DNA of 64,000 nucleotides from Cyclonatronum proteinivorum (GTDB lineage: Bacteria; Bacteroidota; Rhodothermia; Balneolales; Cyclonatronaceae), in assembly GCF_003353065.1 (NCBI RefSeq), contig NZ_CP027806.1, positions 558,001 through 622,000 on the forward strand. Direction: 5' to 3'. The notes under the pieces are model-generated. The model was not told the DNA's origin, made no database searches, and saw only the letters and a program-made list of their open reading frames with translations. This document shows, in pieces, positions 30,637-52,277 of this stretch; positions within the stretch are counted from its first letter, which is position 1, and every line of letters begins with the position of its first letter. A program made the translations under genes and the position numbers.

Positions 30637-31701
30637 TCAACACCGGTATCGCCCTTGGGCGATACCGGTGTTGGCGCTCAGGCCGGCCGGCCTGAGCGCC
30701 AGCGCGGCATCAAAGGCCTCGTTTTTCTTCCACAAATGGTACATCAGGCACAACAACTTTTTCTGCAAGGCCACATTGGCCTTCATTTTTATCCCGTGCC
30801 GGCTGACTAACCGATCATAATAGCTGTAATATGGTTGCTTCCTGTGCGACAAAATATTGCCAACCGGCATGTACATGGCTGCCCTGATGCGCGCATTGCC
30901 CTGTTTCGACATTTTTCTCTTGCCTTTGTGTTTGCCTGACTCCTTAACCAATATATCGTAACCCGCATAGCTGATCAGCTGGCTTCTTGACGTAAAGTAT
31001 TCAAAGCCCAGCGTCTCTGCCAGCACCGTGGAGATTGTAATCAAACCTATCGACGGAATCGACTTCAGCTTATCCACCTTTTCTTCGATCTCCGGATCCG
31101 AATCCAGATGCCTGGTGATCAGCTTTTCAAGCTTGGTGATCTGTTTATCCAAGGCAGCGATGGTTTGCTGGACAATCTTGCGCGTATCTTTGATAGCGTA
31201 AGCGCTGTAATTGAGAGCGTGAAGCTGGTTTTTGAGCTGGGTCCGCTGTTCTACCAACGCGCCACGGGTACGCGTGAGCTGACGCAGCTCGCTCCAATAG
31301 GGTTTAATGCCCCGCCATAGCTGCAGCTTCTTGCGCGCACCCATCAGGGCTAGCCCGCGGGCATCAATACGGTCGGTTTTGTTCTTGAATCCCTCAGACT
31401 CATTGAATCTACGCGCCTGACTGGGTAAAACCACGCTTAATGCCCATTCGGGGTGGTTATCAAACAGGTGCAGGGCAACCCGCTCGTAATACACACCGGT
31501 GGCTTCCATGGTGATGCGCACCGGTGCAGGCTGTTTGGACTCCCATTTGGTGACCCAGCTGACAAACTTGGGCAGCTCTGCCTGGGTGTTGTTAAACTTT
31601 CTGGAGGAGCGTACACGCTCGGTCTGTTCAACAGGGTTATACTCGAGGATGCAGGCCTTGAAGTCGTCTTTTGAGATATCTATGCCAGTGGAATAAAACA
31701 T
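30637..31701 (-). CDS. IS110-family transposase, element 1
   Basis: A 354-residue DEDD/serine recombinase. N-terminal RuvC-like domain: 'GIDISKDDF' (first Asp), 'MEATGVYYE' (Glu), 'NKTDRIDARGLA' (two Asp). C-terminal Tnp_20 domain: 'SIPSIGLITISTVLAETLG' and 'KRKMSKQGNARIRAAMY', which supplies the catalytic Ser. The gene looks intact. Its last 20 or so codons run through two large palindromes (30638-30700), so the C-terminal tail is probably element-specific rather than family core. Not closely alike to the second IS110 transposase in this window. Confidence 0.93.
   Translation of the reverse strand: MFYSTGIDISKDDFKACILEYNPVEQTERVRSSRKFNNTQAELPKFVSWVTKWESKQPAPVRITMEATGVYYERVALHLFDNHPEWALSVVLPSQARRFNESEGFKNKTDRIDARGLALMGARKKLQLWRGIKPYWSELRQLTRTRGALVEQRTQLKNQLHALNYSAYAIKDTRKIVQQTIAALDKQITKLEKLITRHLDSDPEIEEKVDKLKSIPSIGLITISTVLAETLGFEYFTSRSQLISYAGYDILVKESGKHKGKRKMSKQGNARIRAAMYMPVGNILSHRKQPYYSYYDRLVSRHGIKMKANVALQKKLLCLMYHLWKKNEAFDAALALRPAGLSANTGIAQGRYRC
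30638..30700. repeat. two back-to-back perfect palindromes at the transposase 3' end
   Basis: First, AACACCGGTATCGCCC (30639-30654) and its exact inverse (30657-30672) are separated by only TT. Second, GGCGCTCAGGCCGG (30673-30686) is followed at once by its exact inverse (30687-30700). Both lie inside the coding sequence and end at the stop codon. No T-run follows, so they are not classic terminators; a role in RNA stability, roadblocking or protection from readthrough is possible. Confidence 0.85.
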
Positions 31702-48804: not shown

Positions 48805-49076
48805 CCCCCCCGCGAGTCCGTCTTCTCGGAAATGCCCGCACTGAATCCGAAAAATGCCCCAATGTAACCGGCCTTATCCGGGATCTACCAGCTTCGGCCT
48901 GCGACCATGCCGGTAGCTGGGCTTCCAATGGCGACCGGGGACTTTGTGGAACATGCATTCCAAACTTTTACATCGCGGCAGTTCAGGCTTGGTAGATCCC
49001 GGATAATGCTGCTCCGGCTTTTGTGCAGGTTATCCGGCACCTTGCAGCAGCATTTCCGGGATGACGGGGTGGGGTG
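48805..49076 (+). repeat. 270-bp palindromic repeat, copy A
   Basis: Outer ends resemble CCCGTCATCCCGGAAA / TTTCCGGGATGACGGG (left arm here degenerate: GTCCGTCTTCTCGGAAA). Nested inside is a second inverted repeat, TTATCCGGGATCTACCA with its inverse TGGTAGATCCCGGATAA. Copies B, D and E in this window share the layout. No coding capacity. Confidence 0.8.
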
Positions 49077-49164
49077 GAAGATGTTTTAAATGAAGCCTAA
49101 TAGAACTATTCAGATGAATTATTTGCAACAATTGATTAGGTTTGAAGAAAACCAAACTTAAAGA

Positions 49165-49476
49165 ATGAGCAGTATGAAGGTCAGTTATGTCTATATTGAA
49201 ACAAATTATGACAAGTCAGTCTTTTATACGGGGGTGACCAGCGACATCCATAAACGTCACTATCAACATCAGGTTGGAACTTATAATGGCTTCTCAAGCA
49301 AATATCATACAAAATATCTTGTATGGTATGATGTGTTTTCGCCAATTACTGAAGCCATTAAGTTCGAGAAAAGACTTAAGCGTTGGCGAAGGAGCTGGAA
49401 AATTGAGCTTATTGAAAAGACGAATCCTGAATGGCTTGACCTTTCAACGAATGAACCTTTTGGCAGAAGAGAGTAG
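49165..49476 (+). CDS. GIY-YIG nuclease family protein
   Basis: A 103-residue single-domain protein. 'YVYIETN' and 'FYTGVTSDIHKRHYQH' give the GIY-YIG core with catalytic Arg in the 'SDIHKR' helix region, and 'IKFEKRLKRWRRSWKIELIE' with 'NPEWLDL' the C-terminal part, including the conserved Glu. This matches the short UPF0213/YhbQ-type family. It lies between two copies of the 270-bp repeat inside a unit duplicated 707 bases downstream. A role in movement or maintenance of the repeats is conjecture. Confidence 0.85.
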   Translation: MSSMKVSYVYIETNYDKSVFYTGVTSDIHKRHYQHQVGTYNGFSSKYHTKYLVWYDVFSPITEAIKFEKRLKRWRRSWKIELIEKTNPEWLDLSTNEPFGRRE

Positions 49477-49507
49477 CTGACACTGACATGGGTCAGCTGA
49501 TTTTTCT
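49473..49507 (+). terminator. terminator after GIY-YIG copy 1
   Basis: AGCTGAC (49475-49481) pairs with GTCAGCT (49493-49499), followed by GATTTTTCT. The duplicated unit has an equivalent at 50182-50215 with an extended stem, GCTGACAC/GTGTCAGC, then TTTTCT. Confidence 0.7.
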
Positions 49508-49510
49508 ACC

Positions 49511-49783
49511 ACCCCCCGCGAGCCCGTCATCCCGGAAAGGCCCACACTGAAGCCGAAAAAATGCCCCGATGCGACCGGCCTTATCCGGGATCTACCAGCT
49601 TCGCCCTGCGACCATGCCCGTAGCTGGGCTTCCAATGGCGACCGGGGATTTTGTGGAACATGCATTCCAAACTATTACATCGCGGTAGTTCAGGCTTGGT
49701 AGATCCCGGATAATGCTGCTCTGGCTTTTGTGCAGGTTATCCGGCACCTTGCAGCAGCATTTCCGGGATGACGGGGTGGGGTG
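49511..49783 (+). repeat. 270-bp palindromic repeat, copy B
   Basis: Well-preserved ends: AGCCCGTCATCCCGGAAAGG at the left and TTTCCGGGATGACGGGG at the right. Nearly identical to copy A from its middle to its right end, as expected if A and B are halves of a tandem duplication. Confidence 0.85.
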
Positions 49784-49871
49784 GAAGATGTTTTAAATGA
49801 AGCCTAATAGAACTATTCAGATGAATTATTTGCAACAATTGATTAGGTTTGAAGAAAACCAAACTTAAAGA

Positions 49872-50183
49872 ATGAGCAGTATGAAGGTCAGTTATGTCTA
49901 TATTGAAACAAATTATGACAAGTCAGTCTTTTATACGGGGGTGACCAGCGACATCCATAAACGTCACTATCAACATCAGGTTGGAACTTATAATGGCTCC
50001 TCAAGCAAATATCATACAAAATATCTTGTATGGTATGATGTGTTTTCGCCAATTACTGAAGCCATTAAGTTCGAGAAAAGACTTAAGCGTTGGCGAAGGA
50101 GCTAGAAAATTGAGCTTATTGAAAGGACGAATCCTGAATGGCTTGACCTTTCAACAAATGAACCTTTTGGCAGAAGAGAGTAG
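49872..50183 (+). pseudogene. GIY-YIG gene copy 2, nonsense mutation
   Basis: Almost identical to 49165-49476. The codon TGG (Trp 78, after 'RLKRWRRS') has become TAG at 50103-50105, removing the last 26 residues, including the conserved C-terminal segment. The rest of the frame stays open to 50183. A recent duplicate that has lost function or is losing it. Confidence 0.88.
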
Positions 50184-50315
50184 CTGACACAGCCATGTGT
50201 CAGCAGAATTTTCTACTCCCCCCAAACCCGTCATCATATATTAGTTGAGCGGCAAGGATCAGCTGTTTTGGATAAGAATCTTACAATATTAACTTGTACA
50301 CAAACATGAAGGTGA

Positions 50316-50449
50316 AAGCGCGTTGGTACCCTGTGTTTCGTCATTGAGCTTCGAGCTCGTCCGGGATGAAACCAACGCGCTTAACTCCACTAAGCAAGAA
50401 CAGTTCATAAGGCTTCGAGCCAGCATAAATGATGGATATGCTAATGGAG
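50316..50449 (+). ncRNA. bridge RNA of IS110 element 2, with readable target and donor guides
   Basis: Two stem-loops in tandem. Target loop: AAGCGCGTTGGT (50316-50327) pairs perfectly with ACCAACGCGCTT (50371-50382), capped by GAGCTTCGAGCTC (50346-50358). Inside, CGTCAT (50339-50344) is identical to the left target plus core, and TCCGGGATGA (50360-50369) is the exact complement of TCATCCCGGA at the insertion site. Donor loop: CTCCA (50385-50389) with TGGAG (50445-50449), capped by GGCTTCGAGCC (50411-50421). ACAGTTCAT (50400-50408) is identical to the element's right end plus core; ATAAATGATG (50425-50434) is complementary at 9 of 10 positions to core plus left end. RNA ends are not determined. 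Confidence 0.88.
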
Positions 50450-50488
50450 TCCCTCATGATTATTACCATAAATGAAAATAACAATATT

Positions 50489-51448
50489 ATGTATTTTTTC
50501 GGAGTTGATGTCTCAAAAGATACCCTTGATTTCTGCAAAGCGGGTCAAAAAAAAGTCAAAAAAGCGGCTAACGAACCTGCAGGCTGGCAACAGCTCGCCG
50601 ACGCAGTAACTCCAGACAGCTGGGTGGTGATGGAAGCCACCGGTCCGTACTTTCTTGGTCTGGCCATCTTTCTGACCGACAGGGATATTAAGGTTAGTGT
50701 CGTTAATCCGCTAATGATCAAAAACTACTGCAAAGCCAAAATGAGTCGGGTCAAGACTGACCAGGTTGATGCGCGTCTGATCGCTGATTATGCCCTAAAA
50801 ATGCATGCAGATCTGCAGGTGTGGAAACCCAGACCGGTGAATACGCGCTCTATTCGGCAATTAAACACCGTTCGGGAGATGCTACTCAAGCAAATCAACC
50901 AGGTCGAAAATCAAAACCATGCTTTCAGTCTTGATGAGCAGGCCTGTGAAGCTGCCCTGAGAATTAATAATCAAAGTCTGACATTCATGCGTGACTCACT
51001 CAAAAAGGTTGAGCGGAAATTGGATGAATTGGCCAAGGAAGAATACGGTGATTTAATCAAAAGAATTTCCACTATTCCGGGTGTTGGCAGGGCTACTGCA
51101 ATCCTGTTATGTGTCTTAACAGACGGATTCACGCGCTTTGAAAGTCATCAGCAGCTGAGTACGTATATCGGGATTGCGCCAAGTCCGTATCAGTCAGGTA
51201 CAAGCGTAAAGGGCAAAGGTCATATAAGCAAAATGGGGGCTGGTTATGTGCGAAAACAGCTGTATATGTGCGCTTACTCAGCGAGCCGCTATAACCCCGC
51301 ATGTGGTAACCTGTATAAACGTTTAAGAAGTAAAGGAAAACCTCATAAAGTTGCTCAGATAGCCGTTGCACATAAATTAGTAAGACAGGTGTTTGAAGTC
51401 GCCATGACCAATTCAGTTTATGATGAAAAAAAGGCGCTGGCCGCTTGA
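50489..51448 (+). CDS. IS110-family transposase, element 2
   Basis: A 319-residue protein from ATG 50489 ('MYFFGVDVSKDTLDF'). RuvC-like residues: 'GVDVSKD', 'VVMEATGPY', 'RVKTDQVDARLIADY'. Tnp_20 domain: 'STIPGVGRATAILLCVL' and 'GKGHISKMGAGYVRKQLY' with the catalytic Ser. The gene is intact. The frame extends upstream to 50429, but that part overlaps the end of the bridge RNA and is unlikely to be translated. Confidence 0.93.
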   Translation: MYFFGVDVSKDTLDFCKAGQKKVKKAANEPAGWQQLADAVTPDSWVVMEATGPYFLGLAIFLTDRDIKVSVVNPLMIKNYCKAKMSRVKTDQVDARLIADYALKMHADLQVWKPRPVNTRSIRQLNTVREMLLKQINQVENQNHAFSLDEQACEAALRINNQSLTFMRDSLKKVERKLDELAKEEYGDLIKRISTIPGVGRATAILLCVLTDGFTRFESHQQLSTYIGIAPSPYQSGTSVKGKGHISKMGAGYVRKQLYMCAYSASRYNPACGNLYKRLRSKGKPHKVAQIAVAHKLVRQVFEVAMTNSVYDEKKALAA

Positions 51449-51462
51449 CTTTTAATACAGTT

Positions 51463-51610
51463 CATCCCGGAAAGGCCCACGCCGGAGCCCAAAAATGCCC
51501 CGATGCGACCGGCCTTATCCGGGATCTACCAGCTTCGCCCTGCGACCATGCCGGTAGCTGGGCCACCAATGGTGACCCGGGATTTTGTGAACCGGCATTC
51601 CAAGCCGGCT
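51463..51610 (+). repeat. 270-bp repeat, copy C (interrupted by the IS and 3'-truncated)
   Basis: Left arm CATCCCGGAAAGGCCCAC continues from 50219-50234 on the far side of the IS. The copy runs through TTATCCGGGATCTACCAG and GGCATTCCAAGCC and then stops at a run of C where copy D begins, so its right half is missing, as in the partial copy at 48709. Confidence 0.8.
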
Positions 51611-51888
51611 ACCCCCCCCACCCCAAACCCGTCATCCCGGAAAGGCCCACACTGAAGCCGAAAAATGCTCCGATGCTATTGGCCTTATCCGGGATCTGCC
51701 AGCTTCGCCCTGCGACCATGCCGGTAGCTGGGCCACCAATGGTGACCCGGGATTTTGTGAACCGGCATTCCAAGCCAGCTATTGCATTGCGGCAGTTCAG
51801 GCTTGGTAGATCCCGGATAATGCTGCCCCGACATTCTTGCAGGCTATCCCGCCCAGTGCCGCAGCATTTCCGGGATGACGGAGTGGGT
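51611..51888 (+). repeat. 270-bp palindromic repeat, copy D
   Basis: Full-length copy: CCCGTCATCCCGGAAAGG on the left, TTTCCGGGATGACGGAG on the right, inner pair TTATCCGGGATCTGCCAG / TGGTAGATCCCGGATAA. Intact IS110 target sequence in both ends. Confidence 0.85.
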
Positions 51889-52004
51889 TAGGGTTTGGGT
51901 GGTAAAACCGCGCTTTAGTGGTAGTGGGAATGTTTTTTTGATCGGTAAAACGTGAGTCGAATCCTTTACAGAAACAAGATGATGGAATAATTCCAACACT
52001 TAAT

Positions 52005-52277
52005 CCCACCCCAAACCCGTCATCCCGGAAAGGCCCACGCGGGAGCCCAAAAATGCCCGGAGGCTGCCGGCCTTATCCGGGATCTGCCAGCTTCGCCCTG
52101 CGACCATGCCCGTAGCAGGCCTCCAATGGCGACCCGGGACTTTGTAGAACATGCACTCCAAGCCAGCTATTGCATCGCGGCAGTTCGGGCTTGGTAGATC
52201 CCGGATAATGCTGCTCCGACATTCTTGCAGGCTATCCCGCCCCGTGCTGCAGCATTTCCGGGATGACGGGGTGGGGG
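52005..52277 (+). repeat. 270-bp palindromic repeat, copy E
   Basis: Full-length copy with CCCGTCATCCCGGAAAGG at the left and TTTCCGGGATGACGGGG at the right, separated from copy D by about 115 bases that hold no gene. Confidence 0.85.

What the first reader, a model, noticed from the sequence alone, without database searches (positions are those of the whole stretch)
50232..51465. IS110 element whose bridge RNA guides can be read against its own insertion site and ends
Seen: the leader (50316-50449) forms two stem-loops. Loop 1 holds CGTCAT and TCCGGGATGA; the site, rebuilt from intact repeats, is CCCGT-CAT-CCCGGA. So the first segment equals the left target plus core and the second is an exact 10-nt complement of the right target. 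Loop 2 holds ACAGTTCAT, identical to the right end plus core, and ATAAATGATG, 9/10 complementary to core plus left end (CATCATATAT). Known: IS110 elements such as IS621 use a bridge RNA with separate target and donor loops, each with left and right guides. All four guides can be assigned, and they place the junctions at a shared CAT. The CAT-containing core differs from the CT core of IS621.
Basis: partly seen in the sequence, partly recalled or inferred. Interest (0 to 1): 0.93.

Follow-up and report, generated by a model that had tools for sequence, protein, structure and literature searches.

The report
IS110 transposon with readable RNA guides
This is a small jumping gene of the known IS110 kind whose own RNA spells out both the DNA site it jumps into and its own ends; sister copies whose guide and landing site have changed together confirm the reading, so it is a well-supported new example of a known system rather than a new one.

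Summary
Window 50232-51465 is an intact IS110-group element (DEDD/Ser recombinase, 257-nt left end, 17-nt right end). Its leader folds into a target loop and a donor loop whose four segments match the insertion site and the element's ends as stated. The finding's own refutation test was run and passed. The genome holds three full copies. Two have identical loops and sit in the same dispersed repeat. The third (99% identical) sits at a different site, and its target loop has changed to match it; an uninterrupted 101/101-nt copy of that site lies about 0.4 kb away. A same-genus copy shows a third left-guide variant. In relatives at 36-43% protein identity, the right target guide covaries with the right flank (positions 10-14, z 8.6, p<5e-5) and the donor guides covary with the ends (46/46 loci at one position). 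Two refinements. Aligned to IS621, the crossover core is AT; the C before it is a conserved flank. The left target guide is only weakly testable, because GTCAT is nearly invariant in guides and targets and only position 4 covaries. Bridge RNAs, REP-like targets and natural re-targeting are all published. RNA expression and recombination are untested here.

The parts
50232..51465 (+). Complete IS110-group element, bounded by CAT at both ends (only one CAT in the empty site)
   Evidence: Three full copies in the genome; exact empty site for the third copy; paralogous empty sites for this copy
50226..50232 (+). Left target half ACCCGTC (positions 1-7)
   Evidence: Flank read directly; shared by two copies
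50233..50234 (+). Core AT, left copy (positions 8-9)
   Evidence: Alignment to IS621 donor numbering and RDG comparison
50235..50241 (+). Right donor CATATAT (left end of element)
   Evidence: Identical in all own copies
50316..50382 (+). [quoted passage not shown]
   Evidence: Folds; outer stem and inner hairpin kept with compensatory changes in relatives
50336..50344 (+). Left target guide UUUCGUCAU; 6 Watson-Crick plus 2 G-U pairs with left target plus core
   Evidence: position 4 covaries in relatives (p about 7e-4)
50360..50369 (+). Right target guide UCCGGGAUGA, complementary to TCATCCCGGA
   Evidence: covaries at positions 10-14 in relatives
50384..50450 (+). [quoted passage not shown]
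50400..50408 (+). Left donor guide ACAGUUCAU, identical to the right end plus core
   Evidence: position 5 A/T agrees between guide and end in 46 of 46 loci
50425..50434 (+). Right donor guide AUAAAUGAUG, 9 of 10 complementary to CATCATATAT
   Evidence: RDG variants track left ends in relatives
50489..51448 (+). IS110 recombinase, 319 aa from ATG 50489 (the longer ORF start at 50429 lies inside the bridge RNA)
   Evidence: PF01548 and PF02371, NF033542, phmmer to ISCro4 and IS621 structures E about 1e-30; start supported by alignment
51445..51450 (+). TTGACT, candidate -35 box; with TATATT at 50237-50242 it makes a 17-nt-spaced promoter across the circle junction
   Evidence: Joined ends; expression not tested
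50237..50242 (+). TATATT, candidate -10 box of the circle-junction promoter
   Evidence: Joined ends
51457..51465 (+). Left donor plus core ACAGTTC-AT (right end of element)
51466..51471 (+). Right target half CCCGGA
   Evidence: 31 intact CCCGTCATCCCGGA sites in the genome

Best explanation
The element is an autonomous IS110-group insertion sequence guided by a bridge RNA from its left end. Inferred cycle: the recombinase excises the element as a circle; the joined ends rebuild a promoter (TTGACT-17-TATATT) that transcribes the leader; the RNA's first loop pairs with both strands of a target GTC-AT-CCCGG at the edge of a dispersed repeat, its second loop pairs with the joined ends ACAGTTC-AT-CATAT, and the DEDD/Ser recombinase exchanges strands at the shared AT, inserting the circle without target duplication. 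Shown here: anatomy, boundaries, exact empty sites, RNA fold conservation, and guide-site and guide-end covariation. Inferred from IS621: transcription, RNA binding, cleavage position, circle.
For: Recombinase family and similarity to solved IS621 and ISCro4 proteins with the catalytic motifs aligned (D7, E49, D91, D94, S236 of the 319-aa protein). Four guide matches, jointly 0 of 5000 shuffles. Copy L003 differs from this copy at 17 positions in 1234 nt, four of them in the target loop, and its site changed to match: guide CGGTCAT with flank CCGGTCAT, and guide complement CATCCCGAAC with flank CATCCCGAAC; its uninterrupted site is present at 101/101 identity about 0.4 kb away. Same-genus copy L119: guide TGTCAT with flank TGTCAT. 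Relatives: right flank positions 10-14 covary with the guide across 17 guide groups and 42 loci (4.89 of 6 matched against 2.75 expected, z 8.6, p<5e-5; also without the own genus, z 8.1) and left position 4 covaries (p about 7e-4). Donor: ACAGATC in guide and end in 10 of 10 loci, ACAGTTC in both in 36 of 36; left ends CATCC, CATCG, CATTC and CATCA each mirrored in the right donor guide. Helices kept by compensatory changes (10 of 12 predicted pairs).
Against: No transcript or recombination data. Left-target positions 1-3 show no covariation and GTC is nearly constant, so the left guide is only partly confirmed. Some relatives sit at sites with one right-guide mismatch (for example three of four Polaribacter copies at position 11). 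The permutation treats guide groups as exchangeable and does not model phylogeny, although sister elements with different guides (L001/L003, L048/L050/L052, L059/L085) point the same way.
Confidence: 0.94

Rival explanations
1. The recombinase protein alone recognises GTCATCCCGG repeats, and the loop matches are leader sequence captured from past targets without a guiding role.
For: GTCAT is nearly invariant in all targets of the clade, which a protein preference could give.
Against: Right-flank bases vary widely between elements and follow the loop; copies with nearly the same protein (99%) differ in site and loop together. IS621, a homologue, is shown to be RNA-guided (PMC11208160).
Confidence: 0.03
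2. The leader is a cis-regulatory mRNA structure, such as an attenuator of the recombinase gene, and not a guide.
For: It lies in the 5' region of the gene and is strongly folded; small RNAs regulate the ISPpu9 transposase (abstract of PMC8450116).
Against: It does not explain matches to target and ends on the correct strands, nor the covariation. A regulatory role could exist in addition.
Confidence: 0.02
3. The shared core is the trinucleotide CAT, rather than AT. (This is a rival on one detail, compatible with the main explanation.)
For: CAT is common to target and both ends here, and both target guides pair with all three bases.
Against: Most relatives' right donor guides pair with AT but not C; alignment with IS621 puts a two-base core at positions 8-9, cut after position 9 (PMC11208158).
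Confidence: 0.15

Closest known systems
IS621 (E. coli, IS110 group), PMC11208160 and PMC11208158
   Same: Recombinase family and catalytic motifs; bridge RNA in the left end; target loop before donor loop; left guides read like the top strand and right guides are complementary to it; promoter across the circle junction; targets in dispersed palindromic repeats
   Different: Core AT instead of CT; right target guide long (covarying to position 14) instead of 4 bp including the core; left target half almost fixed as GTC in the clade
ISCro4 (solved structure 9t56)
   Same: Closest solved protein by sequence (E about 1e-30)
   Different: Guide and site details not compared here
ISEc21 and ISEc11/ISXne4 seekRNA elements (PMC11187229)
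   Same: RNA with matches to both target strands; natural re-targeting between close relatives already described for ISEc11/ISXne4
   Different: ISEc11 is IS1111-type with the RNA downstream of the gene and subterminal inverted repeats

Membership tests
IS110 group (IS621-like) | DEDD RuvC-like domain plus Transposase_20 domain with catalytic serine | tested here: met
   PF01548 and PF02371 above cut-off; NF033542; D, E, D, D and S aligned with IS621
IS110 group (IS621-like) | Long non-coding left end carrying the RNA, short right end | tested here: met
   Left end 257 nt to ATG 50489, right end 17 nt
IS110 group (IS621-like) | RNA with target loop then donor loop, each with left and right guide on the expected strands | tested here: met
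IS110 group (IS621-like) | No target duplication beyond the core | tested here: met
   Joined flanks of L003 found uninterrupted at 101/101
IS110 group (IS621-like) | Promoter rebuilt across the circle junction | tested here: inconclusive
   TTGACT-17-TATATT in sequence; 36 of 40 listed elements carry TAnnTTTG there; no expression data
IS110 group (IS621-like) | RNA expressed, bound by the recombinase, and required for recombination | not testable with these tools
   Needs RNA-seq and assays
IS621 itself | CT core dinucleotide | tested here: not met
   AT at positions 8-9
IS1111 group | Long non-coding region downstream of the gene and subterminal inverted repeats of 7-17 bp | tested here: not met
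   Right end is 17 nt and the long non-coding region is upstream; no such inverted repeat seen when the ends were read directly; no dedicated repeat search was run

The most novel reading that the evidence does not exclude
A widespread, mostly Bacteroidota and Balneolales clade of IS110 elements with AT core has a split specificity: a nearly fixed left half (GTC-AT) and a freely changing 5-nt right half, and it follows host dispersed repeats of the form GTCAT...ATGAC by repeatedly rewriting its right target guide.
Probability: 0.55. Interest if true: 0.5.

Novelty: new member of a known kind. Interest (0 to 1): 0.36.

Why it matters
It gives a bridge-RNA system with a natural AT core and a longer right guide than IS621, plus a natural re-targeting pair inside one genome with exact empty sites. 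That makes it a clean test case for guide rules and for how these elements acquire new targets. [quoted passage not shown]

Tried and rejected
Rfam scan of the region gave nothing above threshold. The first genome-contig scan with a single protein found nothing; an alignment query found relatives. A first comparison of the window site with its twins used a wrong offset and was redone. Automatic calling of the left end from the right donor guide failed for several elements because the 8-nt search is too short; left ends there rest on the CATC[ACG]TA motif. L039's left boundary was excluded from the left-target test because its flank resembles a donor-loop sequence of a related copy. L024 and L026 have degenerate donor guides and were left out of the statistics. 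The left target guides of L001, L046, L078 and L079 were mis-registered by the automatic rule and corrected by hand before the test. No structure prediction was run because sequence similarity to solved IS110 recombinases was sufficient.

Full report
Observation. The element, its ends and all four loop segments are present at the stated coordinates. The leader folds into two stem-loops, more stably than shuffles. By chance alone the right-target match and the right-end match are very unlikely (1 and 2 of 5000 shuffles), the left-target match of 6 nt is weak (153 of 5000), and all four together occur in none.

Copies. The genome (4.29 Mb, one contig) holds three full copies and one solo left end. 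The window copy and L001 are identical over 1234 nt and lie in the same dispersed repeat at AACCCGT-CAT-CCCGGAAA. Uninterrupted forms of that repeat lie beside the window copy, and the 14-mer CCCGTCATCCCGGA occurs 31 times in the genome. L003 differs at 17 positions, four in the target loop, and is inserted at ACCGGT-CAT-CCCGAACC. Its left guide reads CGGTCAT and its right guide is the complement of CATCCCGAAC. The joined flanks of L003 are found uninterrupted, 101 of 101 nt, about 0.4 kb away, which fixes the boundaries and shows no duplication. A same-genus copy at a contig end, L119, has left guide TTCTGTCAT and left flank CCGTGTCAT. So the refutation test in the finding (same loops, unrelated flanks) was applied and the finding survived. 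For L003 the recombinase has no ATG, GTG or TTG in frame upstream of the conserved part, so that copy may depend on the others.

Relatives. Elements with 36-43% protein identity were found in Balneolales and Bacteroidota, and a few in MAGs labelled otherwise. In 42 loci with 17 distinct right guides, the right flank follows the guide at positions 10-14 and not at 15. The left flank is GTCAT in nearly all; position 4 follows the guide, positions 1-3 do not. The donor side agrees fully: guide and right end are both ACAGATC in 10 loci and both ACAGTTC in 36, and left-end variants are mirrored in the right donor guide. The two hairpin tips and the donor stem keep pairing through compensatory changes; the outer target stem is also kept with different sequences in most rows.

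Core. IS621 is cut after a two-base core at positions 8-9, of which the T is nearly invariant (PMC11208158). The donor here aligns as ACAGTTC-AT-CATAT. The right donor guides of most relatives end in GAT or AAT followed by a base that does not pair with C. I therefore read the core as AT with a conserved C at position 7. Alignment to IS621's donor sequence uses my knowledge of that sequence, checked against the residue numbering in PMC11208158, not against a fetched record.

Mechanism. Joined ends form TTGACT-17-TATATT; in 36 of 40 elements listed the same place holds TAnnTTTG, which I know as the Bacteroidota -7 promoter motif. This agrees with the junction promoter of IS621 (PMC11208160). 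Transcription, RNA binding and strand exchange are inferred from IS621.

Known or new. Bridge RNAs were predicted in most IS110 elements (PMC11208160). Targeting of repetitive extragenic palindromes by such insertion sequences has been described (title of PMC1525189). Natural re-targeting has been reported (PMC11187229). This is a new, well-documented member, with an AT core and a longer right guide.

Noticed in passing
window 30694-31521 (minus); loci L016-L022: A second IS110-type family with seven copies, 29% identical in protein to the first; ends read ACAGTACCT and its leader holds AACAGTACCTAG, which suggests a CT core and its own bridge RNA, inserted beside T-rich sequences.
   Followed up: partly
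L004, G000:C1:3240707-3240819: A solo 113-nt left end that stops exactly at the GTCAT of its left target guide and continues as CTCGAACG, which resembles a right target half; it looks like a deletion from the guide's core to the right-end core.
   Followed up: partly
window 49165-49476 and 49872-50105: Two nearly identical reading frames that begin MSSMKVSYVYIETNYDKSVFYTG (my guess from memory: GIY-YIG-like), a direct duplication just upstream of the element; the second is shorter.
   Followed up: no
window 48964-52260: Cluster of dispersed repeats that begin CCCGTCATCCCGG and end CCGGGATGACGGG, seven intact ends besides the occupied one; similar GTCAT-edged repeats are the targets in distant relatives.
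   Followed up: partly
L039: Polaribacter copy whose left flank ACAGATCATTAGACAT resembles the donor loop of its own kind, as if inserted into another copy's bridge RNA gene.
   Followed up: no
L055, L073, L080-L117 (part): Flavobacteriia relatives with right ends CACAGTACTTTGTTG or CTCAGTTCTTTGTTG, suggesting a sister clade with a TT core.
   Followed up: no
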